In this document: piece by piece, positions 23,838-62,045 of the stretch
Position numbering within the stretch: the first letter of the stretch is position 1
How the letters are laid out: every line of letters starts with the position of its first letter
Source: Undaria pinnatifida
Taxonomy: Eukaryota; Sar; Phaeophyceae; Laminariales; Alariaceae
Assembly: GCA_012845835.1 (NCBI GenBank)
Contig: JABAKD010000017.1
Span: 858,001-922,000 of the forward strand
DNA length: 64,000 nt
Direction of reading: 5' to 3'
Notes under the pieces: generated by a model
What the model was told of the DNA's origin: nothing
Database searches by the model: none
What the model saw: only the letters and a program-made list of their open reading frames with translations
Made by a program: the position numbers and the translations under genes

Positions 23838-24044
23838 GCAGTAGTAGCAGTAGCAGTAGCAGTAGCAGTAGCAGTAGCAGTAGCAGTAGCAGTAGCAGAA
23901 GCAATAGCAGTAGCATTAGCAGTAGCAGTAGCAGTAGCAGTAGCAGTAGCAGTAGCAGTAGCAGTGGCAGTGGCAGTGGCAGTAGCAGTAGCGGTAGCAG
24001 TAGCAGTAGCAGTAGCAGTAGCAGTAGCAGTAGCAGTAGTAGTA
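23838..24044. repeat. (CAGTAG)n microsatellite, about 207 bp
   Basis: Nearly pure hexanucleotide with a few interruptions. It abuts the TIR element at 24045. It produces poly-Ser, poly-Ala/Thr and poly-Leu phantom ORFs in other frames. Confidence 0.95.
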
Positions 24045-24325
24045 CCTTCGACGTGTGCTACGACAAAATTGCACCATTTTTTCGCCAAGGTTCTTGCTGT
24101 TGGGAGATTAAGACATTTTTTTCTTGACCCAAAAATTGATTTGGATAAAAGTATAATGCTATGGTATCACATCGGATTGAAAAGTTTATGGCCTAGGTAC
24201 ACGACGATAATCATGCAAAAAAATGGTCTTTTTTCGACGATTTCGGGTTAAGGAGCCTCGACATTTGCGATCAATTTTTTCCGACGAAAGTTGATACCTC
24301 TATTGTAGCACGCATTTTCCTATGC
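24045..24325. mobile_element. R5 TIR element (MITE-like)
   Basis: The left end reads GACGTGTGCTACGACAAAAT and the right end CTCTATTGTAGCACGCATTT, giving inverted termini around GTGCTACRA. The interior holds CGACGATTTCGGGTTAAGG, a core word found in several other copies (44415, 46986, and inverted at 48169 and 61713). There is no coding capacity, so it is non-autonomous. A (CAGTAG)n tract touches its left end. Confidence 0.6.
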
Positions 24326-24790
24326 ACTGCTAAAGCTTATCTGGAACAAAAAAAAAGTGCTATTAATATCACTTAATGAACAACGATACGACGCTCTTGG
24401 AACACGACGAAACATGTTGCAAAACAAGAATAAATTGGAGAGTTAAGGAGCTGCGGCAGGCAGAGAACGATTCAGCCAAGCATTGCCACCTCTGTCGCAG
24501 CGAGCATCTGATGTCCCGACCGGAATTCACGTGTAAAACACGACGGAGTCTAACACGAGTTTCCGTGTGACACGTCCTGGGATACAGTGGGTTCCAGCGG
24601 CACGTCCCACGACGTGATCAATCACTTCATGCGAGAGGGAGGTTTACGTGAGTGACCTATTCCATTTTTCGTCAGATGTCTACCGAGAAAGAAATCCTGG
24701 CTTGAGTGTAAGATGCAACACCGCGGCGCATAAACACCGCACACACTAAAGTTAAAGACTTCGCGGGGTCAGCAAGTAAGCGCCGCGATT
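24326..24790. other. intergenic
   Basis: No gene or repeat copy recognised. Confidence 0.4.
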
Positions 24791-25690
24791 ATTCGTCGGG
24801 CGGTATCCGAACCCAACCATTGATTCCTGTGTGGTCACCCGTGGCATTTGTATCGTTTACGTCCGGAACTACGGTTTCCGTGGTAATTAATTTTGATGGG
24901 CTCCCGTGGAACGTCTGCGGGCTGCATGAGAACCAATGGGATTTCAGAACCCCATGGAAACTGCCCACGGGCTCCCGCGAGATGATCCCGTTGGTTCTCT
25001 TGGGAACTACCTGGGATCCCACGGGCTTCTGTGGGAACCCCCGGGACCTCTCCGGTCCCCTTGGGAAGCCCACGGTATGCCACGTAACGCCGTGGGGTCC
25101 CGTGAGGTGAACCATGGGACCCTAACATCAAGGGCATGTTGTGGCGTTTTTTTGCCTTGGCAAGGATGTCCACATGGTGAGCCATTCGTGATTCCCCACC
25201 TTTCGGCGAGGGGGGAGGGCTTGCATACGTCGTCATTTAGTGGACGATGTCTAGTGGGCAGGCCATTCCCCCCCCCCCCCCCGTTGTGGCAATCGGAGGG
25301 AGTACTGCCTCTTGTGTCACAAGGGAGGACTTCCCCCTCCTTGTGGCAAGGGGACCCCCCCCCCCCCCCCCCCCCCTTTGGCAACGGGAGCCGGTCCTCC
25401 CCCTTTTGGATAGGAAGGGGATCCCCATCGTTGTGATAAACGGGGGGGGTCACCCAAGTAGTGGAAAGGGGAGGGGGTTCCACCCCTTGTGGCACGGGGG
25501 GGGGGGAGCTTACTTTATGGCAGAGGTGGGAATCCTCCTCCTCGAGGAAAGGGGGGAGGGGGTTGTGGCAGGAGATGGGACCCCTCTCCGTCAGGAAATG
25601 ACCCCCACCTTGTGGAAAGAAGGGACCTGGTGAGAAAGGGGGGGAGTGCCCTCCCCTTTGTGGCCGGGGGGGGTGGCGCGTCCAACCGTG
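24790..25690. repeat. GC-rich degenerate minisatellite with long C and G runs
   Basis: The first part (24880-25130) repeats words such as TGGGATCCCACGGG and CCCATGGAA. The second part (25160-25690) repeats CCTTGTGGCAAGGGG-like units of about 40 bases separated by runs of 8-20 C or G. These runs could fold as G-quadruplexes, and assembly or read errors in run length are likely. Confidence 0.8.
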
Positions 25691-25709
25691 TATTTACCCC
25701 TGCTCAGGT

Positions 25710-25761
25710 CTATCAGCGGAAAGATACAATAGCTGTCGCTAAAACGAGCGACAGCTGATAG
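25710..25761. other. nested hairpin
   Basis: AGCTGTCGCT (25731-25740) and AGCGACAGCT (25747-25756) form a perfect 10-bp stem with loop AAAACG. An outer pair CTATCAGC (25710-25717) and GCTGATAG (25754-25761) offers a competing fold. It lies about 120 bases past the end of the helicase relic on that gene's strand, where a Helitron 3' hairpin would be expected, but no convincing CTRR end follows at the usual distance. Confidence 0.6.
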
Positions 25762-25877
25762 AGGTAACTGTCGTCAGACGTGTGCGTCCACGGGCCATTG
25801 GTTCGTGTGACTGCGAGGGGCACCACAGGTGGAATAGAGCCGATGTGACGTTTGCTGTATTGTAATTGATGTGGTCA

Positions 25878-26520
25878 TTAGTTGGCCGCGACGGCGTTGA
25901 AGACGCCCATGCCTGTGTACCTATCCCGCGTGCTTTGTGCGAAGTCCACCAGCCTAGCCTCTTCCCGCAACCTAGCTTTCACGGTGTCGGAGTTTACAAG
26001 CTTGCCTATCCTGTCGAAACTCATTGGCTCTACCATGAGGTCCGCTAATCTTTTAGCCCTACTGAGACAGACGAAAGTAAGCCCCGTGCAGGCCTCCTTC
26101 GGCCCCAAGTCTATGACGGCCTCCTCTCACGTCTGCCCCTGTGATTTGTGCATAGTGATGGCCCAGCAGAGTCTCAACGGCAGTTGCGTCCTGACCTGCG
26201 TTCCCTCGTCCTGCCAAGTAGTGTCTACGGGAGAAATCGGCACACACCCTCTATATCTCTCCTGAGACGACCATTCCCCCCCTGAGTATCCTCTGAACTT
26301 GACGACAACGTAAAGGGGGAGGTTCGGCGGGGGCACGTCATCTGCAAACGCCAACTCGACGACTTGACCTCGAATACCGTTCACGAGTCCAACTTGTTGG
26401 TACAGGTTCTTCGTGAGCATGACCTTGGGTCCCTTAGCTAGGTAGATGTCCCTCTCAAGCCCCTCCGCCGTGTCTGCTGTCGCCCTTCTGCCGTTGGCGC
26501 ACGGACCGAGTTTGGGTCAA
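25878..26520 (-). pseudogene. PIF1/Helitron-type helicase C-terminal relic
   Basis: The minus strand reads GLERDIYLAKGPKVMLTKNL, QQVGLVNGIRGQVVEL, then LRLCWAITMHKSQGQT. A TGA interrupts exactly here, and the same frame resumes EEAVIDLGPKEACTGLTFVC and LSRAKRLADL. These match the last motifs of PIF1-family helicases (the KSQGQT and LSRA motifs) in the right order. Walker A and B are absent, so this is only the C-terminal part; the frame is closed by a stop upstream near 26518. The stop probably replaced a single Leu codon. It could come from a Helitron or a cellular PIF1 copy. Confidence 0.8.
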
Positions 26521-28407
26521 TCGTCCCCAACGGACGTCTCTCCATGATGACCTACTTTCACCACGAGACAGGAGTAGATAACTCAGCAGGCACACCCCTA
26601 GCGGGCACACACTCTCCATGCCCGCTCTCCGCCGGCCACTATTGTCGCCCGCTGCGCCCGTTGTCTGTGTGCTGCCCGCTGTGTGAGCGCTGTGTGCCGG
26701 CTGTGTGAGCGGTGTGTGCTGCTGTTTTTGCCCGTGTTGTGTGCTGTGTGTGTGTGTTTTGTTGCTCCGTGGTGGCGTGCCTACACCTGCAGTCTAAAAT
26801 CAAATGATCCCACACTAAAATCAAGTTGAGTCAAAGACACGCACGCAAACTACTTTTTTTTCGTGGGAACCTGTATTACGAGGCCCAGGTGTAGATTAGA
26901 AACTCGCTTCGCTCGAGTAATATTATTCTGATTTTCTGGCTCTCGTTCGATGCTTCTGTACATGTTGCTGCTGTGTCCCCCCTGTGTCCCCGTGGGAGTC
27001 GTCCGCATTTCTGGTCGTTTTATCGCATCGTCATCGTTTGGCGAACTGTCGAAGATGTTGTCGTACAAAACCTATTGTCGATTCGACTGAAAAAAAAGAA
27101 GTTTTCATTGATTGACATACCGAAACGCTCGATGGGATCCCCAACACAAACTGGCACCCCCACCGCACATCGTCGAATGAATGGCATCAATTTTGTGAGG
27201 CAACACGTACCGCACGCAGTTAGTTAGACTCTGCTCATGGACTCCATACCCTCTAAAGCGATAGATTGGAGAAAAACTAGTGGTAGAAACAGGAATGATG
27301 CAAGCGGGCGTCCAAAGTGGTTCCAACTACCGCCCCAACCATCGTTGACAAAAGCGTGTGCGTCCGTTTGATTCAAGGTGCGCTCTCTTCCGCCAATTGG
27401 CAGCAATTTACCAACTGTACGCGTGTGCGTGCGTTCAAACGCGTGTGCAGCTAGTAAATAAATGTCTGTTCTCACTACCCGAATGAATGCAATTCGCGCA
27501 CACTACTACTACTGCTGTTTTTCAGCCACTTGCGTGCAGTGTTGTAACATGCGTGCTGCTGCAGTATTAATAGTTTTTTCTTGCCCAACCACTTGCGTAC
27601 GGTATTGCATTTGTTTCGGACACATTATACAGTTTGCTTGGTCTTCCTGTTGTAGAGAGGCTATTATTATATTATATTATATTATATTATACTGTATATG
27701 TTAACGCCTCCGTGGTAAGAGTCGTTCTACGGTAGCCCCCCCCCCAACATTTCTTCAACGAAATCACCGGTTTCAAAACCAGCTCCCGGTCGTATCTACT
27801 GAAACACGATGTCCCTCGACACCCCGACGCCATCGATCGATAGACCTTTGCACGCAAGAAAATGTGTGGATGGATACCTTTCTTTCAATAGTATCCTTCC
27901 TTCTGTCGAGCAGCCCCAAAATGTTCGTCAAATGATATCGCTGGTTTTGGGGCTATCGTAGAATCAGTCGTAAGTAGTGTTCACTCGCCGAAATCATCTC
28001 CCGGTAACAACTCGCGAGTTCTCGGATACAGCAAAGAGAACCTACTCCTACGCCCCTACCTAGTACTGCAGTACGGCAGCGGTTCGGAAAAATCGAGGAT
28101 GTTGACAAAAGCTGGCTCGTTTTTTTACATTTTTCACGAAACACAACGCCCGCTGAGATGGAGGTGCCAGCAGTGCTTTAGGCTATAACATGCTTTCTGA
28201 ACGACGAGACTCGTCAACCTATTAACAACCTACTACTACTGAAGTATAAGTCTAACATGGTAATAACATGGTCGTCATAGCATTTCGGTAATATGAATAC
28301 ATTAATATGGATACAATACCTAGGCCATGGGACAGTTTGGTCGGCGCGTACTACGATAGAGACATATATATGGTATACCTCTTTTTGGCTGAAATGATTC
28401 GTGGATG
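26521..28407. other. intergenic with minor repeats
   Basis: 26650-26755 is a GTGTGCTGCCCGCTGT-like minisatellite ending in a short (TG)n. 27660-27692 is a (TATTA)n microsatellite. The remainder has short ORFs without recognisable domains. Confidence 0.5.
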
Positions 28408-28690
28408 ACCTACAATAGTCGGTGCTCTTCAACCTATAATAGTCGGTGCTCTTCAACCTATAATAATAATAGTCGGTGCTCAACCTACAATAATAATAGT
28501 CGGTGCTCTTCAACCTACAATAGTCGGTGCTCTTCAACCTATAATATTACGGGGGACCATAGTAAATAGGACCTACGGTACACACAAAAACCAATATATT
28601 TCCGTATTTTGACCAACAATGTTTGGTCCTATTTACTATGGTCCCCCGTAATAGTCGGTGCTCTTCAACCTATAATAGTCGGAAATAGGC
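28408..28690. repeat. 23-bp tandem array split by an insertion
   Basis: Units read ATAGTCGGTGCTCTTCAACC plus TATA. About five lie left of 28545 and about two right of 28652. The array resumes in register after the inserted element, so the insertion postdates the array. Confidence 0.85.
28546..28652. mobile_element. 107-bp snapback element with perfect 28-bp TIRs
   Basis: 28546-28573 is exactly the reverse complement of 28625-28652 (starting ATTACGGGGGACCATAGTAA). The loop is 51 bases and noncoding. It interrupts the 23-bp array. The perfect arms indicate a recent insertion of a very short MITE; the target duplication is only 2-3 bases of AT and cannot be fixed because the array is AT-rich there. 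Confidence 0.85.
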
Positions 28691-28810
28691 CGTTTTGCTC
28701 TTCTTGCGTGGTTCTCGTCGTGCACCAAGGCCATGGGATATGTTCGTCCGGTGGTGGTGGCATTTTTTTTTTTGTTTTATTTTTTTTTCCTCCGAATTTG
28801 TTGTTGTTGG

Positions 28811-28954
28811 GAAAGGTCTTGCTACGTTGAAGAACCTCAGAAAAAAACAACAATGGTTGGCCCGCCCCTATCGTAGCACGCGTCGGTCGGTCGGTCGGTC
28901 GGTCGGTCGGTCGGTCGGTCGGTCGGTCGGTCGGTCGGTCGGTCGGTCGGTCGG
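28811..28954 (+). repeat. R5-type end followed by (GGTC)18
   Basis: AAAAACAACAATGGTTGGC and ATCGTAGCACGCGT (ending about 28882) match R5-type ends near 44680 and 61910. A pure GGTC tetranucleotide of about 18 units (28883-28954) begins immediately after. Confidence 0.8.
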
Positions 28955-29239
28955 GCTGCACTGTCTTCTTTCCCTACTACACTATTAATTGACCAGCTTT
29001 GGGGTGAGTTATAGTCTGTACAGTAGTTTATCAAGTGATCAAGTGATTACCCTCACAAAAAAGATAACGGGGTACGCCCTTTTTTTCGGTGGCGTATGTA
29101 GTAGTATAAACAATAGTAGGGCGTTACGCATCCACACACAGTCTTGGGATCTCGTTGCAATCGGCTCCGGTTCCGGTGCAAGCTTTCCACGACTTCAACA
29201 TATGTATCAACAACAAAGCGACTCTGAGGAAATCGTGCG
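28955..29239. other. intergenic
   Basis: No gene recognised; only short ORFs. Confidence 0.4.
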
Positions 29240-29320
29240 CGGTGGATGGTGGGATTCGAACCTACGACCCAAAACCCCATGGTCTGTAGACGTGGCCATT
29301 CGGCAAGAAAGTAGAGGGTA
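29240..29320 (-). other. tRNA-like relic (pol III box A/B)
   Basis: The minus strand holds TTGCCGAATGGCC, resembling a tRNA box A, and about 35 bases later GTAGGTTCGAATCCCAC, a near-perfect T-arm with box B. I could not build a full cloverleaf: the acceptor stem does not close and the anticodon stem is weak. Best read as a tRNA pseudogene or the head of a SINE. Confidence 0.45.
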
Positions 29321-29482
29321 TTAGTCCGTTTGACCACTTGCAAAAGATTAATCAATTGCCTACCTTACAACAACAGTCAGTGCAGAAGGATGAAGAAACC
29401 CGCGCCCAGGTATGTATGCAAAACAAGCGCTTTTGCGAAGTAAGAATTATACTTTGCTACTATACCTTTTAACACCTTTATC

Positions 29483-29539
29483 TTCGTAGCACGCGTTTCC
29501 AACAACAACAACAATAACGACAACAACAACAACAACAGC

Positions 29540-29573
<34 letters not shown>

Positions 29574-29620
29574 ACAAAAACAACAACAACAACAACAACA
29601 ACAGCAACAACAACAACATC
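29483..29620 (+). repeat. R5-type end followed by (CAA)n
   Basis: TATCTTCGTAGCACGCGTTT at about 29480-29498 runs straight into about 120 bases of CAA repeats with rare CGA or CAG interruptions. Confidence 0.85.
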
Positions 29621-32339
29621 AACGTACAATTCCGCGAACAAGATCCCAAGCAAAGACACTTACCATGGTATTATACAAAAATTGGCTCCTCCTCATATCT
29701 TAGAGTTCTCCACTCCACCCACCCACATGGTTAGGGAAACACGACAAGCGCAACAAGATTAGTTAGCCGATGGTCTAGAGGTATACATGTAAACCGAAAA
29801 CAACACGGAATATTTTTGAGCGATGTTGAATGGCTTTTCTCAGTGTCGACGAACCTCATCAGGGAGAATCATTCTCGGCGAAAAAACGCCCCTGTCTCTT
29901 ATGAACTACCAGGTATGAATTTCGAGCAGTGTGTCCCCGAAAAACCGGGGTGCAGTCCTATATGGGGGGTTGGAAATCGACGCAGCCAAATGTGATGCGT
30001 GTTTGTGTTCTGTGCCGTTACATCCATCCGCAACGTGCTCCGGGCGTGCAACTAAACAGGTGTGTTGGCCCCCCGCCGTTCACGTGGTGTACTGTGTGTA
30101 GCCCATATATATGTAGCTAGGTCAGAAGTTGGCTCTCAAAAGGGATAGAGTTTGAGTTACGGTAGGCTTCATTTTTGTTTTGTCGTTTCGCTCGTTTTTT
30201 TTTTCTATCTGTGATTTATTATGAGCGGTCGACGTTGCAATTGCGATGCCGTGCCGAAAATGGCAGAAAAAATGTAGCCACGCCTATGTGTATTGGATTT
30301 CAAGTGTAAAACGTTTTTAAACGAGCTTCGCTTAGCCGCCGACAACGCCAGCCGCCACAGTAAGGAGTTGATGTATCACCACAAAACAAATTTGTGGGGG
30401 TAACTAGTACTTGCAGATGCCACACGTGCCACCAACCACGTTATGATTTTCAGCTCAAGAGTGCTCCCCTCTCATGAAGGCTTCTTGATTTTCCCACGGA
30501 TCGTGACAAACAAACAGGGTTTCATGCGCGGTGGTGGTCACCGCTAAACGCAGCAGAACCTACGACATAAGTAAGTGATGAGTTGCAACGAAATCCTCCA
30601 TCTCACAACTTGATTGATTGAGTGCTTTTTGTTTTTTATTGCGGAAACAGTAGAGCGTAGATGAGTTTCGACGAAAGCTATCATCTTAGACATTGCAGCT
30701 GAACACTTGCGAGTATTACCATTTGCCTTTTATATGAGCAGCAGGGGATAGATAAGTTTCGACAAGATCCTCGGTGTCAATGCTCAATGACGTGCATCTT
30801 TTACTTACTTGTTATAGAATCAGCAAATCATAATCACAGATTCGTCTTGACTAAGTCCTCAATCTCACAGCTCAAATGACGTGTATCGATAGACGAGGTT
30901 CGAAAAAACTCGACCCACAGCTGAAGAAGGTTTTTTTTTCAAGTGTACACAGAAACAGCAGAGCCTGGGGCACTTTCGCGACCGACCAACAAAGTATCAC
31001 ATTATGCTTTTTCCTGCCCTGCCCCAGCTGCTGATCACACACCACCCCTCTCCTGTTTGTCACAACACGCTCTGATACGCCCTCAAACCAATTCGGCTGG
31101 AGCCGCCCTCAACAAAGCCCTGTAATACCGTCTCGACGAACAAAAGCGAATCCTCCGTCTAACCCGTCCATCGTTTTTAGTTAACAGAATAAAATCCACA
31201 TGAACTTCAAGATTTATTTTCCTAGAACAAGTGGGTGCAGTTATGAGTGCTTCTACCAAGGGAGGAAAAAAAGGCCCGACCCGAACCAAACAAACCACGA
31301 AAAAATACGTGAATGAGATTAATTTGGCTTTCAACTTTTTTTTTTACTTCTGGCAAAGTTACGATCAGTTCTCCCCACGCCATACACTCATCCAATCAGT
31401 ACCGGATCGATATACAATCGTGAAGATCGGTGCAACAGCCACCACAAGACGGACAAAATACCCACGGTAACAAAAAAAAGGGGAGGGGGGGGGTGACAAC
31501 GCCAAACGAGCAGTAGCGGACGAAACGAAACGCCTTTCTATAAATTGATTCCGAGGTGACAGTGAGATGCGCGTAGTCCGTCAAGTAGGCACCACCGGAG
31601 ACGGAGAAAAAAACTATCTAACTTAACTAGCCCTTTTACAACTGCAAAACTATCCCATACACATTTCCAAGTCAGCCCGTCTAAAACAAATGTGTTTTTT
31701 TGCAGTTCTGAAGGTGTTAAGGTGTGGCGTCTAAAAATCAGGCAAAAGCTGACAAAAAACAAACCTAGCGTCGATCGACCGAACGGGTGCGGTGAAATCG
31801 GTCTTATGATCATCCCACGCAGCCAAACGGGAGTACACACTCAGCAACATTACCCCCCCCCCCCCCGCCCTCCTCCTCATGTAGTCCAAGTTGATTGTAA
31901 CGTCCGTCCATAAAAAACTGTGTCTAAGGATGTACAAAGCGCGGATAAAAAAAGGAATTTCCCCCCCTACCCTTTCCTTCATCGGAAAGAAATGCAGTAA
32001 GACGACGTGAGCTATTCAGGAGCGTGGGCGAAACCTCCATCCGCGAAATGCTACAGATACGATCAAGAAGACGAAAATCTGTTTTACAACGACCGCCCCA
32101 CCAGAAGACGAAAATATTTGTCCGTAAATCTTCCATGTCAATTCAACCGAAACTTCCTTCGGGTACAATCGAAAACTTTTATAACGACCGCCCGCAAGAG
32201 GAACAAATGGTCCGAAAAGCCTCCGTGGCAACAAAAGATAAAACCATACCTTCCATTCAACCATCGGCGCGATCGGTTCCTAAAATCGGCGTGGGGGAGC
32301 AGGCACGCCCAGTCGGTAAAAAGACGATGCCAAAAAAAT
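29621..32339. other. intergenic with faint R3 pieces
   Basis: Between 30570 and 30900 a phrase like GATGAGTTTCGACAAAATCC plus TCTCACAGCTCAATGACG recurs about four times at about 90-base spacing, heavily diverged, matching R3 at 53452 and 54450. Around 32060-32190 a phrase like ACGACCGCCCCACCAGAAG occurs twice. A C run lies near 31850-31866. No gene supported. Confidence 0.5.
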
Positions 32340-34788: not shown

Positions 34789-37700
34789 TCAAAACTCAAA
34801 GGGATGCCTGCCATTGATGAATGCCCCCGTGCCAATCGGAGAGGCGTGGCCGAGGTTAAGGCTCATGACAACTTCCATCTCTTCGTCGGTCATCAGCGGC
34901 TGCACCAAAGAAATAGAGGGCGAAGGCGGGGGGAGGGGGGTCTGACTCTCGAAAAGCGAGGGAGATGGGAAAAAGAGGAAATGATATCAACAACGCAGTA
35001 CATGGCACCCATTAAGAAGCGGAAACACTGACACAGGCTGTTACCAGGTTTCTTATTTGTTTGGGAGAGGGGCGCAATCTACATTAACTTCAGTGTATGT
35101 CGGCTCGCAATGTTTCATTGTGTTCCTGCAAAGTCTCAGGCTAAATTTTATTGTTTTTTCGTTGTCTCTTATCAGGTACCCTGTACCGTGGACGGGATTG
35201 AATCAGCTCAGTGTTTTTGGTGCGTTTGCTCGGTGGTGCTTCACAACAATACAAAACTCGACCCACCTCCGAGCCGACCAAGAAGCCATCGACCAGGTTC
35301 GCGGAAGGAGATGCAAGCGCCCCCGTACCGCGTGGCGTTGAGATTCCGTGGCCGACACTGCCCACGCGTACCGCTGCCGCACCACCCATTCCCACGTTGC
35401 CAACGGCGGCAGCCCCCGCCAGCTGGTGACCACCGTCCTTGGTCATGGCGGGCGGCGCTCCCGCCATATCAAGGTGGATGTCGTGTGTCTTCGGAATGAT
35501 CTGGGGGTTGTGGATGGCGGGGGGGCTTACGACACGTTCATCCATTGCTCCCCATAGCCCCTGCCATCGGTGGGTGATTTTTGACAAAGGCAGGGACAAG
35601 CGAGAAGGGGGAAAGATAAGACGTCGTTAGCATGGGACATCAAGGATGAAATTGGTCTGATCGATTGGCTCTGATTTTCATAGACCATGGAGGTGTCCCA
35701 GTGGAAATACTCCCCCACACACCCGCGCGATCAACAGTTACCTACACTTGTTCTGGCGGGAAAAGTAGAGGCGTTTTTTTGTTTTTTAGCGCTGAGGGCA
35801 CATGCTACGGTAGAGAGGTTGCGCAATTTTATTTCTGAGGCTCCTGGCTTCAGGTGCCCCACACGTTTAGTAGTATTACTAGCAGTACTGCTATTAGTAG
35901 TATACCTCAGCCAAAACAACCATTTTGAGAAAAATCGAAAGACGCGTGCTACGATGGAGGTAGCAAATTTTGGGTGGTTTCGTTTTCTGGTTGACGAGGG
36001 TCCCCTTGTCGAAATACCGTTCTTGTTTCGACAACATTTTAGTTGTACTGTTTACCTGCTGCAGGGCATAGGTTTGGCCATCGGTTTTCACTCTCAATTT
36101 TTGCTCAAAAATGTGCGTTGGTGTTAGAAGAAAAAAAAAATGACCACCTCAAGCGAGGGGTAATATTGGGAAAAAATCGTTGCACCTCTGCCGTAGCATG
36201 TGTCTGAAAGCGCGCCCCAGCAGACAAGCCCACGGTCTATGTGTACAAAACATTTGTTTTTGTACTTTCTTATGTTGTTAAAACAGAACGGTATTCAGAA
36301 CGGTATTCAGAACGGTATTCCAACAAGTTTGGGTCAAGTAGCCTCATCGCACGCGGGGATAAAGTGCTACCTCTTCTATTGTTGCACGCGTGCTTGGCCG
36401 CTTGTCCTTCTTCGACGACCTGTTCTCCTTCTTTGGCTCTTTTGTCAAGCGGCGTCGGCAAAAGATTCGAATGCCTATTTCACGGTTGCAGCTTGGTACA
36501 GAATTGACCTGCAGGACCGACCCCTCAGGCGATGTTCTTCAGAGTTTCGACTACCCACTTCATTCACACGTGATTCGCTACCGACTACGGTAGTTATTCG
36601 TCGTGAAAATATGATTACTCGAAGATCTATTCAACAGTGTGGCTGCTACCGTAGCACCCATCGTAAGAATCCATGTACTGGGCTCACCCTTCCGTTGTTG
36701 TTGATTCCAGCTGTCGTCGCCGGTAGGCCGGACGCCTTAAGCCTGGGAGACCGCCTGGTGGGAAATGATGCCGCTAAGACCCCGGCGTCGAAGACAGCAT
36801 CATAATTTGCTGCTGCAGATCCCGCCACCCCTGTCGCTCCTGCGTCACCTCCAGCGCCACCACCTACACCAACACCGACACCACCGATACCGCTAACAAC
36901 GTTGACACCCACACCACCAACGTCTTCGCCACCAACACCACCAAGACCAGCACCAGCACCACCAGCACCACCAATATCACCACCAACACCACCAACACCA
37001 CCAACACCACCAACACCACCAACACCACCAACACCACCACCAGAAACACCAACAACGACATCACCGCTTTCGCCCACGCTGAAGCCGACCCCAGCCGAGT
37101 CATCCCCGTCTCGTAGTGAACCGCTGGCCTTTCCTCCACTCTGCTTAAACCGAGGCGATCTGCGGCATCGGGGAGATTCTCGGCCGGTGTCAATCGTTTC
37201 GCCCTTACGGCTTAGAGCGTAGTCGCCACCGTCGACACTCACACACATTCCCTCGATACCCGCGTTGCTGGTGTCCTCAGCAGCGATGCTTGCCGCGGAG
37301 GTGCCGTGGTTTGGGGTGTCCCCTCGTCCCCCGAACCCACCGCCGCCGCCGCCTTCGCTGCCGCCGCTGCCGCCGCCGGTTTGGGTGACCTCGCCAACGA
37401 CTCTACCAAAGCTTGCACCGTCTACGTTTGCGGGAGAAACGCGACCAAGGCGCGGCGAGCGCCTTCTAGGAGACGCAAGGCTACCACGAGCACCACCACC
37501 AACATCTACACCACCAATACCACCAACACCACTGCCAACAACACCAACACGGCCAGCGCCACCACCAACACCAACACCACAAGCGGTTGAAGAGGCTGAA
37601 CTGGAGCAGATGGAAGGCGATGGACTGCCAAATATTGAGGGTTTAAGTATCAAACCACCGCCGTGGAACGGGGCATAGCCTAGGTCCAACCCCAACCCGC

Positions 37701-43700: not shown

Positions 43701-46700
43701 CACCGCGTTGTAATGTAGTAGCGCTAGATCACAAAAACAACTTGTACGTACGGGTTGGGTTGCCCATCGGTACCACAGGGGAAAAGTATCTTGGCCACAG
43801 TATGAGGAAAGTTACCATCCAACCGCCTGGACCCCTTGTTTTCAAACTTCAGCGACGCTGTCGCGGTGCTGACAGGTCACCAAAACTGCTGCCGAATTGC
43901 CACACTGTACTGATGATATCGACTAATCCATCGTACCTGTAGGGTTGTGTACTTTTGGATCTGATGTGAGGCTGGAGTTAAGCTAAGGTAAAGCTGGGAA
44001 TTATCGTACAAAAATATTACGTTGTCGAGGTTGTTCCAGGTCTGAATTTCGGCATGGCTTGGCCCGCACAAAAAAACAAAAACGTGGGCAAAGCAACACA
44101 GGTGAAGGCAGCAGCGGTCACACAGCAGTGGTATTGGCGTTCGTCGAATTATGTACTACGATGTTGTACCTTCGGGGGGGGAGGGGGGAGGGGGGGGAGG
44201 GCATCGCTTCTTCGAAGAACAAAAAACGGCAATCTCTGCTTTCGCGTGGAGCATTTGGAACCGACGCGGGCTGCGATAGAGGCGCACCACGTTTTTCGAA
44301 CTGATTTTTGAGGACAATAAACCTGCTTTTATCGCGGACGATGGAAAATCCCTCGGCCTATGCCTATGTAGGCACACGACGAGAATCACCATGCCGAAAA
44401 AGAATATGAACTTCTTTGCTGCGATTGAGGGTTAAGAAGCCCCCGTCAGTCAGAAACCATTTCTGCCAAAAAGATGTATACCTTAATAGTCATTCAGAAA
44501 CCATTTTCGCGAAAAAAAATGTATGCCTTCATAGCTCTATATCGTAGCACGCGTGTTTCGTACAGGCGGTGTTGTTGTTCTTTTACAGAGCTGTGCCCAC
44601 CACAACATGTCGGCACTTAGAAGGTCTTTCGCAAAAAAGAAAAAAGAAAAAAAAAAATCGCTACGGCGGAGGGTGTGCACCAACCATTGTTGTTTTTGCC
44701 CTCCGAGGGTGTTGGCTTGACAAGCTGCTTTCTATGCCTACACTCGACGAAATTGGAAGTAAACTAGCACTGCAAAGCCGATGAACAACACCCATGGCCC
44801 AGGCACAAGAACAAAAAGCATGCTACAAAAAAAATAAAATAGTAGTTTTGGGTTACGATTGGCTAAGGAGCGCCCGTCATGCAGGGGGAAAAAAAAAAGG
44901 CCAAAAATGCTCACCTCTATCACACCACACGTCTATCGTTGCACAATGCCCGAGACAGCAGGAGGGAAGAAAGGTCAAAGGAAGTAAGGCCCAGGAAGCC
45001 GTATTGCACACTATGTCTAGAAAAATGGACGTATTTGCGTCCTATTAAGAGTGTTTTCCAGTTTGCGGCACACCGATACAGGAAAGCCTTGCGGTCCTTC
45101 GAGCCCCCCCTAGCAGCAAGCTACTTGGCCAGTAGCCATTGCGACCAAAGCTACGGTACCATAAGGGTTGTGTATGTTTTTTTTTGTTGTGTTTTTTTGG
45201 AGCGGGTCGGGGTCACTATGATAGCGCGAGCGATCCACCCCCCTGTTCTTTGCGGTCGTCGTCTAATAATAGTGCTGTTTTCAGTTTTCGATATGAATTC
45301 TTAATGGGACGGTTAGCTACCTAACGTCGTGTGGTCATTGAGGTACAGAGTCACTCGGGCGAGTATGACAGTACGATAGTGTGATATGATAGTATGATAT
45401 GATAGTACGATATGATAGTATGATATGATAGTATGATATGATAGTATGATATGATAGTGTCATATGATAGTATCATATGATAGTATGATATGATAGTATG
45501 ATATGATATTAATTATATGATATGATAGTATGATATGATAGTATGAGATGATAGTATGATATGATAGTATGATATGATAGTATGATATGATAGTATACAT
45601 GATAATATGATATGATAGTATGATATGATAGTACATGGTATGATGTGATAGAATGATATGATATTGATAGCATGATGTGATAGTATGATACGATAGTATG
45701 ATACGATAGTATGATACGATAGTATGATAAAGTAGTATGATATGATAGTATGATATGATAGTATGATAGTATGATACCTCAAACTAGGTAGTGAAAATTG
45801 GGGGTAGCCCCCTACCGAAGCCTTTGCCTTGCACCTTGTTCTGTCATCTTCCACGAGGGGAAATTCAACTGACAAGATGCAACAAATGTGTGTCCGGTGT
45901 TGCGCAAGAGGCAAGTCGTGCAAGGAAAGTTAATATATGGAAGTAGGTTTTAGGTATCATTTGGAAGTAGAGTTTTCTCTTCTTCCTGTCGGTCGGGTAC
46001 CATGTTCTTGGAGGGAGCGACGTTTTGAACCGGGCATTGTCGAAGGAAAAAGACAACAATTTCGCCAAAAACAATACCAACACATGCACATAACCGTACG
46101 TGCCAACGAAAAGAGAAATGATGGAAATTCCTGAACAGGACACAAGCGGCAACCGTTTGTTGGGTAGTTTTTGTTGTTGTTGAAGGTATGAATATTATAT
46201 GGTATTTGATGTATGCGTTCACCTTGCGAGTTCGATAGCGGTGACGGAACGGCTGTCAGCCGAGTCAACATCGGAGCTTGTCGACAGAGTAGCCGCGATC
46301 GCCTGCAGCGGGTTTCAATCAACAAGGTCAGGAAAGGCGACACAGCGGCGGGGGGAGGGGGGTCACGGCGGGGGGGGGGCAGGCGGGATCGGGGCGGAAA
46401 CGGGGGGATATTCAACATCTATCCCCTGAGGCTATAATTCTCGAATGGATTTTGGTGAGTGGTTGTTACATAGGAGGATAAGTGAGGTGGGCAGGGCGAG
46501 GGGCACGGGAGATTGTAGACGTTTTGCAGCGTGTTCAAGGGACCGTTCAAAATGTTCGTGTGGTTGCCTCACAATATTTCGCCAACTAACTGCCGCAGGC
46601 GCGACTATTCCTAGCCTCGACCGTTGGAGCGAAACGTTCAACAGACTCTATATTTTATTCTTGTGTGTGCGCTTTGGTCCCCGCATTTCATCCACTGCCG

Positions 46701-49700
46701 CATGCCCGAATGGTTCCGGCCACAAAGGTGCTTTACTCGAATACTATTCATAGTACGGTATTAAAATAGTGCTATCAATAATAGTGGTAGTAGTAGTACT
46801 GCAAGCACTTTTCACGGTAGACGTGCCCTGTTTATTTTCTGAAGTTCGCCCTCGCGTGACACACTGTACTCCATCTATACACCCCACCGAAAAAAAACGG
46901 ATTTTGAGAAAGGGGAGTGCAACTTCGACCCCCATGGCCTAGGCATACAATAAAATCGTTTGTCGAGAAAAAAACAACGAAACTCCGACGATTTCTAGCT
47001 AAGAAGGGCCCCCGGCATTTCAGAAAATATTCTGACCAAAAGTTCTAGACCCTTAACGCAGCACGCGTCTGCACACCTGTTGACGGACCACCGGGTCTTG
47101 AATTTTACTGACGTCGTAAAGCACTTGTTGAGCCGCTTCCTGAGCGCAAGCCATGTACCTTTCCAATTCTGCAAGCCGTAAAAAGGCAGCAAGGAAAAAC
47201 AAAAAACAAAAAACCATAGCGTTGCTGAGAAATTGTTCGGGTAGTATACTTCGCGTAAGAACGCCGTGAAAATGCACCAAAGTGATTGCGACCCCACCGC
47301 GCGAGCTATGGTGGAGGTACGAGCCGGGCCAGCTGTGAGACTTAGAATCAGTCATGAGGTAGTGCCTCGTGAACTACAACGAGTCAGGGCTTGAAGTTTG
47401 GAAACAATGACCCTGACACATCAAATAATGCAGACAATAAAAAACAATATATTGAAAAATTGTGACATATATATTCATATTTCGACTCGAACTCGAGGAC
47501 ATATCGGCGAAAACTCGAAAACGCCATTTTTTTAACACTAATTCCATAACCAAATGTTCGTTTCCGATTAAGGTGAAAGTGACGGTGGCGGTGTAGACAT
47601 CACTGAGCACACCACAAGGAACAGATCGACATCGGTTTTTACAGCCCAATTCGCCGATCGTCACAGGATACGGACAAAACGAGATCCCATGCGTCGTAAT
47701 ACAAGTGTAATAACAATACGAAGTGTTACGAGGAAACAAAAAGAAAGTAATTTCCGCGATGCACAGCTCATTTTGGCGATTTTCCATCTGGAATGTGAAC
47801 ACCCGTATTCGTGACGCTCGTGCGAAGACATGTCTTGCCTGGATTCTCCATTTCGGGTTTTTCACATGAGTTTCAGCCGCGCTTCTACTGTTTTGGGATT
47901 ACATTTTCGGCCGAATCTCTCGCAAAATAGAAACAAAATAAACTAACCTCCCGCAAAATAGAAACAAAATAAAATAACCCGTTTAAAAAAAAAGGCTCGG
48001 TTGCTGGATGAACAATGCCGTGTCAAATTGCCATAATATATCCAAGTGCGTAAAATTGGGGGGTGCGTGGCCGATCTCCTGTTGTTTTTAAACGGTCTTG
48101 GCTGTCCCAGCGCGTAGCAATTTTTGGTTGTTGTTTCATGTTTCTGAACGACATGAACGACATGGGCTCCTTAGCCCAAAATCGTCGGGGTTTCATTCTC
48201 TTTTTTGCGATATTAGTGTTTTTATATGATATCTAGACCATGAGTCTGTTAATCTGATTTGAAAATTCGGTTTATAGCAGTGATGCACCCAGTTTTAGAC
48301 CACCCCCTGACAAGCCAATTCAGGTGGTCTCATCTTCACTCACGGTCTGTCTTACAGTATATTTTCATACTCCAAAAAATCATGCCAGGCTAATTTCAAG
48401 CACGTTCTTCTTCGTGATAACGCGCAAGACGTTGAGGCCGCAGTAGCACTGACAGCAATAGCACAGCAGTAGCACAGCAGTAGCACAGCACAGCCCACCA
48501 CAGCACAAGTAGAGTCCTTCCATGGTAGGGGTGCATCAGAACGTTCCAAGATTTTTCTGGGGCCCTAACATGAGGAGGGGGTGAACATCAACATCATCAT
48601 CCGTCATCCATCATCCATCATCCATCATCACTCGAGATATGACTTCGAAGACATTCGTTCGCGAAACCCGACTAATGATTATGTGCGTTAGCCCTACTGT
48701 AAATCAAAGATACTCGTAAAATTATCGTACTACCAGATAGTTCCACGCCTGAGGACCTCAACCGGTCAAACGCGTTTGGCCCAAGAAAACACAACCCGTA
48801 CCGCGGGAGTTGTACTTGACGTGGTAGAACAAGTTATCAGAACCTAAAACAGTCACTATAGTCTATCTAGCGTCTCCTGAAACGAAATATATCGATTGCG
48901 TATGTCACCCCCCGCACGTGTTATGAGTGTATGACGCCTTTCAGACACCTCCGTGGCAACAAACCCCCTCACAACCCGAAAACGGTCGTCGCACCGGAGC
49001 AAAAAGTCCTACTTACCGGCCAGCCCCGTCGCCTTTCTCGGCCTCCCCTTCTTTCTGATCGCCCCCTTCTCTTTAGAAACTCCCTTGTCTGCCCCGTCTT
49101 TGCGCACACCACCGCCACCGCATCCACCACCTCCTCCACCACCGCCACCACCACTACCACCACCAAGACCAATATTAACACTCCCAGAAGGTAGCACGTT
49201 GTCGGTAGGGGGCGTCGAACAAACGACCGCCGGAACTCCCACGGCAGACCCACACGCAAGAGAAGAAGCGGATGCTGATGCTACTGGGAATTGAGCTGAA
49301 GAGGCGGTGGGGAGGAGGGGGAGAGGGGCGGGAGCCGCCTTGACGGGGGCCGGGGCGGGGGCTGGTGGGGGCTTAACCCCGCCGTGTACCTCTCGCGTCA
49401 ACCGTCGCACGTTGCGCCGCATGAAGGAATACCTGGTTTTCGTATTTTCGTTTGCGGGAAGGACGTTTTAGTTGGTTTTGGTGGACGTGTTTCTGACACA
49501 ACAATTAGACGAAAGATTTTGTGTTTTTGTTGTGTTGAATGCCGAAGGAGACTTCGATTGAGTGTAGAAAATACCTATTAACAGAAGAGAATATTGTTGT
49601 ACGTACAGACGTGGAAGCAGATTTTTTTGTGTTCTGCCGTATACGGAGCATCTTTTTGTTCGATGCAGACTGACAAATATATTTTGTGGTTCGCGTGCAA

Positions 49701-52700
49701 GATTAAGTGCAGAATGCGTGCGGAAATACGTCTTGTTTTTTCCGTGTCGGAAAAATCCTGCGTCTTTTTTGTTTTTCGTGTGCCATCCTTTCGGACCGAA
49801 CACCTTTTTGGAGACAAAGTTGCTTGAAATTAATATAAGGTGTTTGTTGGCCGTGGTAAATGGGCTAATTAATGTTGGGCTGCAGGGATAATAATTTTGA
49901 AAAAAAGAATGTGTTCGAGTCCAGAGCGACAGCAGACCTGGTGCAAACATAATTTCTGATGATGGGCGCGAGCCGTTACCTTCCATTACAGAGCGTCATA
50001 CCGTTGGGTAGGTTCCATTACAGAGCGTCATCAGAACGGGTGCAAACATAATTTCCGATCTGTGCGAGCCATTACCTCTCGAGTACAGAGCGACAGCAGG
50101 GCGAGTGCGAACATAACTTCCGATCGCGGAGCGAATCATTGCCATTATATTTTTAACGCCAACCTCTGGTAGCCGTATCTATGCTCACCAGTGGTTCTTG
50201 ACCTGGTTGTCTGTCCTTCCAGGCAGGAGCTTCGCGATCTCCGACCAACGGTTCCCTAGCCTGCCTCTCGCGTCCGCCATGATTTGCTCTTCTTCCGGGC
50301 TCCATGCGTTCTTCTTGATGCAAGGGTCTGAATATATATATATTGAACAGGGGATAATGCAGTTGTGTTTACAAAGTATTCGGTCATTTTTGTATAGTTT
50401 TGTTTTTGGCTTATTTTTTACATTGGCTCATGCATTCATTATATCTGGCATACGTTATCAATGGTTGCTATGAACATCCCGGGGAGGCGGCACGTGTCCT
50501 TGTTGGTGCATCTTGATGCAGGGAAGGGTCTGAAAAAAAACACTCGAACGGATTTAATAGGCGTAATGATGCAGTTTTATTAGTATTACCATTATTGTCA
50601 TTCGACAATGTTGCACCAAGAAGAGCTCCAACGTCGGTGACTCATGAACATCTCGAGAAAGAGTCTGTTAGCGTCGGCCACTCATGAACACCTCGAGAAA
50701 GAGTCTGCTAATAACATACCTGGTACGAGTTTCTGATTCACAAAGACGCCAAAACAAAATGACCCTTTCTTTGAAGATCGCCGACGCCATTGTTTAAGGA
50801 CCGAAGTCACAAAACGCAGGGGGATTCGCATGCATATTCAAAAAGTGATACATGTGTAAAAACGGGCGACCGGAATATCACGCAGCTTGCATATATGAGT
50901 ATCAGCCCTTAAATCGATAGAACTCACAGCTCACGTATTTGAAACATACATCCGAAAAAAAAAGTCCGCCACAATTGGACGAGAGTTGTAAACATCCTGC
51001 TGCGCGAGTGCCTAGAGACGACCGTACCACGTACCACTCTGTGCGTGAGTATGATAACCGTGTGGACACTTATAATGCGATAAACTGTTGATTATATTTC
51101 CGGACAGGATGGTAGGCATGATCGACATGCGCGCCGTACGGTGGTCGCCAAACTTCTGCCTGCGCGCTCTTGTCTAGATGCCTGGATTGATCGTACTCAT
51201 CGCTTTTTTTCGGTCGGTGAGCAAGAAGGTCAAGGTGCACGCGCCGGACAGGTCAGAATCCCCGTTTCACGATCTGTGCAACTCCGCACAGATAAATCCT
51301 CGGTTCCTACGTGTATGATCTGTGTGGGCTATGGATCGTATTGCCGCGGGCAAGTCGTATGCTTTGTACGATCTACTAGTAGCACAGCTTTCCTGGGTTG
51401 AAAATCTTGTGTACAGATCCCGCACAACGTAAACCATAACGACAGATATAGGATATATATGATGTATATGATCTACATTAAATGTACGATCTAGATTATT
51501 TAGATTATCTAGATTATCTTTGTGATCTAGATTATGTAGATCAAATAAATTATCTAGATTATCTATTAACAGACTATCTGCGATCTAGATGATATATATG
51601 GTATATACCTGGTATGATCTACATTAGCTAGATCGCCAATAGAAAATCTAGATATAGATAATCTACACGATCTAGATGATCTAGATGGTCTAGGTTACCT
51701 AGATGATCTATTAATATTAATAGATGATCTAGATGATCTAGATGATCTTTTTGATCTAGGTCATCTATATTATCCAGATGGTCTATTAACATATTATCTG
51801 CGATCTAGATGACCTAGATGGTATTCTAACCCTCTATGATGTACATCATCTAGATCATGTAGATCATCAAATAGAAAATATAGATATTCTCGATATTCCA
51901 AATAATCTAGACGATTTAGATTATCTCAATGACCTAGATGACCTAGATAATCTAGATTGTGATCTATCCGATGTGTAATAGCTTCACAAAAAGTCTATCT
52001 TACTATTTACGTATTGACACTCACTGAGATGGTTGTGCCAGCGCTCCCTGCTCTGCTTGCCCGAGCGACCCAAAATCCCGTACGCGGACACCATGTGCTG
52101 CTCCACCACCGCCCAGTTGCGTGTTCCGTGCTGTGCGACCAGTTCTCGAACTGCGTCGTCGTCGGCCTTGGTCCAGGGCCGTCGACTTTGGGATGGGTCA
52201 CAGCGGGGAGAGCGGGGTGGAGTAAGTAAGTTTGTTAAAGCTGTTGACGGGGGATGCCTTCCGGTAAAAGCAACAAAGCAGCAACGCAAAAAATAAACGA
52301 GTATACTGGTACTAAACAGTATGTGTTGTGTGGTGGAGTTTGATGATGGGTGATGTGCGGTGAAGCGGGGGGGGGGAGTGGTGGGTTGGGTCGGGTGGGG
52401 TGAGGAGGGGGGTGGGGTGGGATGGTGGAGGGTGACGTGAGGTCGGGTCGAGTCGGGCGGGGGTGTGGGGTAGAGTGGGGTTGGTCTGGTCTTCGTACGA
52501 AGTCGCACTCTGCCTCCAACGAATCGTCGAGTGCACCTAACTTGCCTCGTAAAAGTATCGCATGTAATGTTTACTCGAGCCTCTTGGCTTGGGTATCATG
52601 GGCTTTTAGCTTTGCGAGAGAGATCTCGTGCGGATACGCATCACTCCGTGTAACCGAGCGAGGGGTGAGCCTCAAGCCGATATCAACAGCAGTGCTGCGA

Positions 52701-52797: not shown

Positions 52798-52833
<36 letters not shown>

Positions 52834-58166: not shown

Positions 58167-58394
58167 CTACTGAAACTTGTACGAACATCGGTGCCGCACT
58201 TTGGCCAGAAAATTTACCGCCAGAGCCTCGTTCGCAACCCAGTATTTTGCTCCATGAGCCTCCTGGTTAGGCCACGGCGGTATCGCGTGGCTCCTGCCGC
58301 AGGCAAGCCCTACGGCGTCCAAATACGTTATACCCCGTGAGTCGTAGGCCATCCCCTCGTGGGTCTCCAGCGTATGAAGAACCACTCCTAGCAC
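58167..58394 (-). other. possible exon (75 codons), doubtful
   Basis: The minus frame (LGVVLHTLETHEGMAYDSRG, then ITYLDAVGLACGRSHAIPPW) has protein-like composition and an acceptor-like TTCGTGCTAG at its start, but no partner exon was found. The plus strand over the same bases is also open and ends at a GTGAGT donor, so orientation is unresolved. Confidence 0.2.
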
Positions 58395-58529
58395 GAATCA
58401 GTTGCAGTAAATCTCGTTCCCATTACGTCGTGACTGCTGCAGGGGGGGCATTGGAGGCCTAGTTTGACCCAAAAAATCGGCAGGCTATTCGGACAGACCA
58501 GCCAAAAAAGATTATAAATTCTCTGCCGG

Positions 58530-58715
58530 GGTTGTAACGAAGACCACTGATAGGGACAGCTTACGCTATACCTACAATGGGACCCGAAGAGTGCGCCAGC
58601 TAGCGTTGGGCTGCGAAAGCAACTGAGTTAAATCGACACACGACGCGTATGAAAATACGTGGAAGTGTGGTGAGCTAAAGCTTTATTTTTCCCCATCCGC
58701 CGGAGGATAAAAAGA
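58530..58715 (+). repeat. R4 repeat, copy 3
   Basis: Contains GATAGGGACAGCTTACGCTA, GAGTGCGCCAGCTAGCGTTG, GAAGTGTGGTGAGCTAAAGC and ATCCGCCGGAGGA followed by an A-rich tail. It joins the features of copies 1 and 2 and so is the most complete copy. Confidence 0.8.
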
Positions 58716-61314: not shown

Positions 61315-61620
61315 GGTCGCCCCGGTGGCGTATCAGGTCATCCTCGAGCCTGGTATAGGTCAGTTTCGTGAGTTCGAATCCCCCGAGTGCATACTCGTAT
61401 AGATTCGTGGGGACTTTTTTCTTGTGCACAAATTGACTTGTGGAAAGCGCGAGAGCGTGAGTTAGCAACACTCGATGAAAAACCGACGAGCAGTGGGATT
61501 GCTGGACCCTATGCGCGATGAAAATTGAAGGCAAGAACCGGGGGGGAGAAAGGACGACATGTGACCACGGCTTGTCCAGAAGCCGGAAAGTAGATGTGTG
61601 TGAAAAAAAAAAGAAAAATA
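61315..61620 (+). mobile_element. tRNA-derived SINE, near full length
   Basis: A box A (TGGCGTATCAGG, 61326-61337) and box B (GAGTTCGAATC, 61370-61380) sit 32 bases apart, as in a tRNA-derived pol III promoter. A unique body follows, ending GGCTTGTCCAGAAGCCGG and a poly(A)-like tail (about 61600-61618). The body matches the truncated copy at 54806-55033. Confidence 0.75.
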
Positions 61621-61862
61621 GTGTGTTCTAGTACAATGCAGTAGCGCGTGCCAAGATAGACGTATTAAGTTATACCAGGTACCAGTTTTCGGCTATAAGA
61701 GTTTTAAGCCACCTTAGCCCAATGTCGTCGGAATTTCGTCATCACTTTTTTTGCAATACTATTTTTTTGGGTTCGTATTGCCTGCGAGGCGCCATGCCTT
61801 TTTTCGTCTGGCCGCGCTTTCGTTTTGTACTCTATTAATAAGTCACGTGTTGGGTGAGCAAT
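61621..61862. other. intergenic with R5 core word
   Basis: CCTTAGCCCAATGTCGTCGG (about 61711-61731) is the R5 core in reverse orientation. Nothing else recognised. Confidence 0.4.
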
Positions 61863-62045
61863 ACCAACCATTGTCCTTTTAAGCCAACAACCTTGCAGGG
61901 AAAAACAACAACGGTTGGTGCTCCTTTTGTCCGTAGCGTGCGTTCCGTATGTGCGTTGCTGTGTGTTATCACTGCTGTGTGTTAGTACTACTGTGTGTTA
62001 TCACTGCTGTTTGTTAGTACTACTGTGTGTTAGTACTTGACCCCT
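61863..62045 (+). repeat. R5-type end followed by an 18-bp-type tandem repeat
   Basis: AAAAACAACAACGGTTGGTG and GTCCGTAGCGTGCGTTCC (to about 61948) are followed by several units of GTGTGTTANNACTRCT (about 61960-62035). Confidence 0.7.

What the first reader, a model, noticed from the sequence alone, without database searches (positions are those of the whole stretch)
23838..62045. A TIR element family (R5) whose ends sit against unrelated microsatellites
Ends with the word CGTAGCACGCGT (or inverted) touch different simple repeats: (CAGTAG)n at 24044, (GGTC)18 at 28883, (CAA)n at 29500, an A/G tract at 44650 and an 18-bp-type array at 61960. Complete pairs of inverted ends are visible at 24045-24325 and 35803-36202. 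Either the element targets microsatellites, or its insertion or end processing seeds new ones. Five different motifs beside one end is hard to explain by chance.
Basis: partly seen in the sequence, partly recalled or inferred. Interest (0 to 1): 0.72.

Follow-up and report, generated by a model that had tools for sequence, protein, structure and literature searches.

The report
Ordinary algal mini-transposon, one microsatellite birth
The repeated word marks the tips of a very common, roughly 250-base mini-transposon of a brown alga; its tips are not unusually close to simple repeats, although one copy seems to show a 4-base insertion scar that grew into a microsatellite.

Summary
The word CGTAGCACGCGT is the tip of a real transposon family: 10,671 exact copies in the 511-Mb genome against 58 for the reversed word. 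R5 is MITE-like: consensus 253 bp, ends GACGCGTGCTACG...CGTAGCACGCGTC, exactly 4-bp target-site duplications (49 full copies, 66% per-base match, z 12.4). The host is a brown alga (EsV-1-7 protein). The microsatellite association does not generalise. On contig C1, 0 of 160 tips lie within 15 bp of a strong SSR, against 5.1% of random C1 positions. In genome-wide listings 6 of 200 flanks hold an SSR, about 7.4 expected. The window's own 2 of 17 (background 2.2%) were noticed because striking. Of the five examples one truly abuts a tip; the others are 5 or 12 bases off, beside a truncated tip, or beside an unsupported end. The abutting one is instructive: the copy at 28343-28884 sits inside an older R5, its TSD is GGTC, and the right-hand GGTC is repeated 17 times up to where the older copy appears to resume. 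That looks like a TSD grown into a microsatellite: one locus, not a family habit.

The parts
24050..24316 (-). R5 copy, full length (body 24050-24314 by HMM); A tip at 24050
   Evidence: nhmmer 151.6 bits; tips
23843..24044 (.). (CAGTAG)n array, 5 bases outside the A tip
   Evidence: TRF
24331..24508 (-). partial R5 copy, model 1-178, beside the full copy
   Evidence: nhmmer 56.4 bits
28146..28342 (+). left half of an older R5 copy (HMM match 28146-28338, model 2-139), ends in GTTTGGTC
   Evidence: nhmmer 27.5 bits
28343..28884 (+). younger R5 copy nested in the older one; itself split by a small palindromic insert
   Evidence: pieces 28345-28448 and 28654-28884; left-hand GGTC
28550..28648 (.). 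99-bp element with 24-bp perfect inverted ends flanked by TA on both sides, inside the younger R5
   Evidence: arm comparison
28885..28952 (.). (GGTC)17, unit identical to the TSD, starting at the tip and ending about where the older R5 appears to resume
   Evidence: count and joined empty site
28953..29077 (+). probable right half of the older R5 (model about 140-234), weak by itself
   Evidence: 8.0 bits alone; joined score 47.8 against 29.4 for the left half alone; 1 of 4000 random joins as good
29485..29496 (+). exact tip word without a recognisable R5 body
   Evidence: weak 24-base model match
29500..29623 (.). (CAA)n array, 3 bases beyond the word
   Evidence: TRF
29689..29889 (-). R5 fragment (model 23-209)
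   Evidence: nhmmer 20.5 bits
35799..35935 (-). one half of an older R5 copy (model 157-251)
   Evidence: nhmmer
35941..36204 (+). full R5 copy nested in the older R5
   Evidence: nhmmer 105.8 bits
36207..36391 (-). other half of the older R5 copy (model 2-155)
   Evidence: nhmmer
44263..44554 (-). R5 copy, probably with a tandem duplication in its B arm
   Evidence: nhmmer pieces; TRF period 44 at 44445-44534
44660..44933 (-). R5 copy lacking its outer A tip, beside an A-rich tract
   Evidence: nhmmer model 1-246; sequence
46814..47069 (-). R5 copy, model 1-243
   Evidence: nhmmer 92.9 bits
48114..48273 (+). R5 fragment, model 20-161
   Evidence: nhmmer 53.9 bits
61643..61944 (+). diverged full-length R5 copy
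   Evidence: nhmmer 67.8 bits; tips
61957..62037 (.). 16-bp tandem array, 12 bases beyond the tip
   Evidence: TRF

Best explanation
R5 is an old, very abundant MITE-like DNA transposon of a brown alga. It has a 253-bp consensus, two different arms, inverted tips GACGCGTGCTACGATAGAGGT, and an exactly 4-bp target-site duplication. It was presumably moved by cut and paste by a DDE transposase made elsewhere; that step is inferred, and no source element was found. It inserts with little sequence preference, also into older R5 copies. The GGTC case is the exception: a 4-bp TSD on one side of a nested copy most likely lengthened, perhaps by replication slippage, into 17 units. The confidence given is for the MITE and chance adjacency; the GGTC step alone stands at about 0.4.
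For: Word 10,671 exact against 58 reversed. Profile, full copies and arms. 4-bp TSD: k=4 identity 0.663 against 0.260 shuffled, z 12.4 over 49 full copies, three of them in the window; other lengths in that register near background. Of exact words in the DNA searched, 85 of 92 lie inside R5 profile hits. No SSR enrichment: strong SSR within 15 bp at 0 of 160 C1 tips against 0.051 of random C1 positions and 0.022 in the window; 2 of 100 and 4 of 100 listed flanks against background rates of 0.044 and 0.030; array edge at the tip 5 of 160 C1 tips against 5.5 expected. Nested insertions with halves on both sides, 3 of 49 full copies. GGTC locus; the tip followed by GGTC three times occurs once in the genome, at this place.
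Against: Window tips alone: 2 of 17 strong SSRs within 15 bp against 0.022 background and 2 of 17 array edges within 6 bp against 0.47 expected. Some copies do sit in or by longer-unit arrays: L017 2416-2674 lies inside a 22-bp minisatellite, whose unit is on both sides (0 of 1000 shuffles as good), and the left flank of the 61643 copy weakly resembles the array on its right (16 of 1000 shuffles as good). Many individual TSDs are mutated or unclear. No autonomous partner was found. Sample limits: C1 stretches were chosen because they hold the exact word, and the two listings show 100 of 133 and 100 of 165 matches. Tips with changed words on other contigs were not sampled.
Confidence: 0.87

Rival explanations
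1. R5 targets microsatellites of any motif, as some plant MULE-type elements target TA or other arrays.
For: Window: 2 of 17 tips within 15 bp of a strong SSR. L017 2416-2674 sits inside a 22-bp minisatellite. Such families exist elsewhere (PMC5907723 and PMC4486113, outlines with abstracts seen).
Against: 0 of 160 tips on C1; 6 of 200 listed tips against about 7.4 expected. Insertion inside an array should leave it on both sides: the (CAGTAG)n array is not on the other side of its R5 (420 of 1000 shuffles as good), GGTC has one unit there, and only the 61643 copy gives a weak hint (16 of 1000).
Confidence: 0.03
2. R5 insertion or end processing regularly seeds new microsatellites, for instance by amplifying its 4-bp TSD.
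For: The GGTC locus: unit equals the TSD, array starts at the tip and ends near where the older host copy resumes. A review proposes that TSD dimers can expand by slippage (PMC9659126, passages seen).
Against: First four flank bases doubled at 3 of 160 C1 tips, against 0-5 at other offsets, and at 0 of 200; three such units in a row only at the window GGTC tip among 177; one tip followed by GGTC three times in the genome.
Confidence: 0.08
3. The (GGTC)n array arose first inside the older R5 copy and the younger R5 then inserted into its first unit.
For: R5 copies vary in sequence and length around model 140-150, with CATCCGGT-like words, and 17 of 113 aligned copies hold a single GGTC in this stretch, so the host may have been prone to slippage there.
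Against: None of the 113 copies aligned there (9 in the window) has two GGTC in a row. One unit lies left of the insert and 17 right; a random position in such an array would do that about 1 time in 65 (own arithmetic). The joint is resolved only to a few bases.
Confidence: 0.3

Closest known systems
MITEs of brown algae, such as the 217-bp TcMar-N1_Ec32 of Ectocarpus (PMC12477816; section 5 part 1 and passages seen)
   Same: Short element with inverted ends, high copy number, presumed to be moved in trans
   Different: R5 makes a 4-bp TSD, whereas Tc1/mariner makes TA (recalled); tip sequences were not compared with that library
SaTar elements of guayule and rice (PMC5907723) and MuTAnT of Medicago (PMC4486113); outlines with abstracts seen
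   Same: Small non-autonomous DNA transposons reported beside microsatellites
   Different: Those are MULEs tied to microsatellites; R5 has a 4-bp TSD and shows no SSR enrichment at its tips in the samples taken
Microsatellite-associated MITEs of pineapple (PMC8449440, search listing only)
   Same: MITE and microsatellite in contact
   Different: R5 contact is at chance level in the samples taken
Micron of rice (recalled, from no call)
   Same: MITE reported to lie in microsatellites
   Different: R5 is not tied to a motif
TSD-slippage model for new tandem repeats (review PMC9659126, passages seen)
   Same: The GGTC array fits the proposed growth of a short TSD by slippage
   Different: The model brings two TSDs together after excision; here the element is still in place and one TSD grew
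Sola-1 superfamily, present in Ectocarpus (PMC12477816, passages seen)
   Same: 4-bp TSD (recalled for Sola1)
   Different: No transposase or tip comparison was possible, so this is only a lead

Membership tests
MITE (non-autonomous DNA transposon) | terminal inverted repeats | tested here: met
   GACGCGTGCTACGATAGAGGT and its complement in the profile consensus
MITE (non-autonomous DNA transposon) | target-site duplication of constant length | tested here: met
   4 bp, z 12.4 over 49 full copies
MITE (non-autonomous DNA transposon) | short and very numerous | tested here: met
   49 full copies of 215-309 bp, median 262; 10,671 exact tip words
MITE (non-autonomous DNA transposon) | no coding capacity | not tested
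   only the short length speaks for it; reading frames of the consensus were not examined
MITE (non-autonomous DNA transposon) | moved by a transposase of an autonomous relative | tested here: inconclusive
   no partner seen; the directed pattern search did not complete
microsatellite-targeting elements (SaTar, MuTAnT, Micron) | most insertions flanked by microsatellite | tested here: not met
   0 of 160; 6 of 200
Tc1/mariner | TA target-site duplication (recalled) | tested here: not met
   4-bp TSD of varied sequence
piggyBac | TTAA target-site duplication (recalled) | tested here: not met
   TSDs such as GGTC, GGCT, TAAA
Sola-1 | 4-bp TSD (recalled) | tested here: met
Sola-1 | Sola-1 transposase with matching tips | not tested
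   no Sola-1 sequence at hand
Helitron / HINE | no target-site duplication (recalled) | tested here: not met
   4-bp TSD

The most novel reading that the evidence does not exclude
At 28885-28952 a microsatellite can be seen with its birth certificate: the 4-bp TSD of a MITE, made inside an older copy of the same family whose consensus gives the pre-insertion sequence, was lengthened on one side only to 17 units after the insertion. A family with some ten thousand recognisable tips and 4-bp TSDs would then let the rate at which TSDs become microsatellites be measured.
Probability: 0.4. Interest if true: 0.45.

Novelty: new member of a known kind. Interest (0 to 1): 0.27.

Why it matters
It closes a tempting story: a high-copy MITE in a repeat-rich algal genome will touch several microsatellites by chance. 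What may remain useful is that nested copies of one family serve as dated empty sites, so one can ask at many loci whether a tandem array came before or after the insertion. If the GGTC case holds, it is a direct example of a proposed route from TSD to microsatellite.

Tried and rejected
Microsatellite targeting: rejected on three samples. General TSD doubling: rejected, because other offsets give similar counts. Array edges at tips: 5 of 160 C1 tips against 5.5 expected, 2 of 17 window tips against 0.47. A first count without removing overlapping hits (243 C1 ends) gave the same direction and was replaced. Tip-sharing longer elements: the three candidate pairs look like chance (one had a 4 of 4 TSD over 8.9 kb with weak tips); 10 of the 51 ORFs listed for L021 and L011 gave no transposase in Pfam (one aldehyde dehydrogenase match). 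Viral contigs (IMG/VR): no exact match to the 19-base tip (the tool says records near the own genome may be left out). Paralogous empty site for the GGTC locus: none found with the right flank; only a dispersed repeat further right matched elsewhere. The far side of the (CAGTAG)n array shows no second half of the neighbouring R5.

The right half of the older R5 at the GGTC locus was negative in several tests: a simple alignment (158 of 300 shuffles as good) and nhmmer on that piece alone. One search returned no hits for any sequence, random pieces included, so it failed as a test (I suspect its E-value setting); one search showed the program running but I did not look for this piece in it. Support comes from the whole-window scan (8.0 bits, E 0.03), from the profile scored without filters (46 of 4000 random pieces score as high anywhere, 2 of 4000 with matching model position), and from the joined site.

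Literature: searches (8 of 10 allowed). Searches returned no paper; one search returned three unrelated ones. I make no claim that R5 or the TSD route is absent from print beyond these searches.

Full report
Host. The window lies in a 511,146,479-base genome of 68 contigs. An open frame at 17219-19495 carries 16 EsV-1-7 stretches (Pfam PF19114, E 4e-193); PMC12477816 says that this domain has proliferated in brown algae and is otherwise mostly known from giant viruses (passage seen). Size and GC (49.0% in the window) resemble Undaria pinnatifida as tabulated in PMC10498591 (511 Mb, 50.14% GC, passage seen), but that assembly has 114 contigs, so the species is not established.

The element. The word CGTAGCACGCGT occurs 5269 + 5402 times exactly, against 28 + 30 for the word read backwards. 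In the window with up to 2 mismatches it occurs 23 times, against a mean of 5.0 in shuffles. Flanks of 92 exact copies (5 in the window, 87 on C1) show a conserved inner side (ACCTCTAT) and one further conserved base, C, outside (85%); beyond it the bases are nearly free. Twenty-eight tip pairs 240-290 bp apart gave a profile, refined to 253 positions. After removal of overlapping hits there are 166 R5 hits in the 302,440 bases searched (window plus L009-L068), 17 of them in the window, and 49 full copies. Median identity of these to the consensus is 86% (range 72-90%) and median length 262 bp, so the family is probably old. It covers 3,101 of 64,000 bases of the window.

Insertion. Over 49 full copies (3 in the window) the four bases before the left tip match the four after the right tip at 66%, against 26% when shuffled (z 12.4). 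Other lengths in that register are near background, and the high values at neighbouring shifts describe the same four bases. So the TSD is 4 bp and the tips are G...C. The clearest target preference is weak, a pyrimidine at the sixth base outside the tip (67% of 177 tips). Full copies nested between two halves of an older copy were seen 3 times among 49: L047, L054 and window 35941-36204. The split copy at the GGTC locus is not among the 49.

Microsatellites at tips. I counted 177 distinct tips: 17 in the window and 160 in C1 stretches chosen only because they hold the exact word. TRF arrays of period 6 or less and score 50 or more within 15 bp: window 2 of 17, C1 0 of 160; random positions outside R5 give 2.2% (window) and 5.1% (C1). 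With score 30 or more within 30 bp: window 2 of 17, C1 6 of 159, background 5.0% and 9.7%. Arrays of any period up to 100 within 60 bp, score 30 or more: 4 of 17 and 16 of 158, background 19.3% and 25.5% (all). The C1 figures are, if anything, below background; I do not read this as avoidance, because intact tips and arrays may exclude each other in detection. Array edges within 6 bp of a tip: window 2 of 17 against 0.47 expected, C1 5 of 160 against 5.5.

Genome-wide control. Two pattern searches listed tips on many contigs with 20 flank bases, chosen only by a triplet 21-23 bases away: 100 of 133 matches and 100 of 165. A tandem run of 10 bases or more (units 1-6, at least 2.5 copies) occurs in 2 of 100 and 4 of 100, against background rates of 4.4% and 3.0% in the window and 20 C1 stretches, that is 6 of 200 against about 7.4 expected. 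One of the two in the first set is a GAT array, favoured by the GAT anchor; three of the four in the second are single-base runs.

The five examples. (CAGTAG)n ends 5 bases from the tip at 24050, and its unit is not recognisable on the other side of that copy (420 of 1000 shuffles as good). The (CAA)n neighbour is a bare word with no R5 body. The A-rich tract at about 44650 lies beside a copy without its outer tip. The 16-bp array starts after 12 bases beyond the tip at 61944; the left flank of that copy weakly resembles it (16 of 1000 shuffles as good), so this R5 may have landed at the edge of an existing array. Only the GGTC array touches a tip. In the window any tandem array lies within 60 bp of a random point 19% of the time, so several neighbours among 17 tips are expected. 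On C1 one copy, L017 2416-2674, clearly sits inside a 22-bp minisatellite (unit on both sides, 0 of 1000 shuffles as good).

The GGTC locus. Left of the tip at 28343 stands GTTTGGTC; right of the tip at 28884 stand 17 units of GGTC, then GGGCTGCAC. The left side is the first half of an older R5 (model 2-139, 27.5 bits). The sequence after the array matches model 136-234 weakly (8.0 bits, E 0.03 in the window scan). Scored without filters, 2 of 4000 random R5-free pieces do as well with matching model position, and 46 of 4000 do as well anywhere. Joining left flank and post-array flank raises the score from 29.4 to 47.8 bits; 1 of 4000 random joins reaches that. Shifting the joint by a few bases changes the score little (49.3 at -3), so the pre-insertion site held one or perhaps two GGTC-like units, but the exact number is unresolved. 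None of 113 R5 copies aligned there (9 in the window) has two GGTC in a row; 17 hold one. The tip followed by GGTC three times is found once in the genome. The simplest account is insertion with TSD GGTC and later lengthening of the right-hand copy. A pre-existing array would need insertion at its very first unit. Shown: left TSD equals the unit, one-sidedness, absence in sister copies. Inferred: order of events and slippage. Against: the right half of the host is weak when taken alone (negative and in the single-piece search), and this is a single locus.

Is TSD growth general? Not in these samples: the first four flank bases are doubled at 3 of 160 C1 tips (L015, L028, and a run of T at L046), against 0-5 at other offsets, and at 0 of 200 listed tips. 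Three units in a row occur only at the window GGTC tip among 177. With none in 360 flanks outside the window the rate is below about 1% of tips (own arithmetic).

Classification. A 4-bp TSD of varied sequence excludes Tc1/mariner (TA) and piggyBac (TTAA), by rules recalled and not looked up. Sola-1, which exists in Ectocarpus (PMC12477816), is a lead only. No autonomous partner was found, and the one search aimed at it did not complete.

Verdict. R5 is a new member of a known kind (MITE) with ordinary insertion behaviour. The microsatellite pattern is mostly coincidence in a repeat-rich window, with one instructive locus.

Noticed in passing
window 29241-29364: Dispersed repeat: 69 matches on many contigs, the best 84-88% identical (40 of 1507 candidates scored). 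It contains GGGATTCGAACC, the complement of a tRNA B-box-like word (recalled): a possible tRNA-derived SINE; Rfam gave no match.
   Followed up: partly
window 28550-28648: 99-bp near-palindromic element with 24-bp perfect inverted ends (CGGGGGACCATAGTAAATAGGACC) flanked by TA on both sides, inside an R5 copy; looks like a small TA-inserting MITE.
   Followed up: partly
window 17219-19495: Open frame (759 aa, stop to stop) with 16 EsV-1-7 cysteine stretches.
   Followed up: no
window 51987-52595: Open frame on the minus strand with a Myb-like DNA-binding domain (E 8e-11).
   Followed up: no
L045 647-691: About 23-bp tandem duplication of the R5 tip itself (CTACCTCTATCGTAGCACGCGT repeated), next to a full copy.
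   Followed up: no
L019 about 4547-5052 and L020 about 4495-4988: Two stretches about 50 kb apart share the same adjacent R5 pair and flank, apparently a segmental duplication that could date copies.
   Followed up: no
G000 C22, four places: Four R5 tips with similar flanks (AAATCC/AAATCG...TATG...GGC): R5 seems to have inserted in another repeat that then multiplied, which would provide further empty sites.
   Followed up: no
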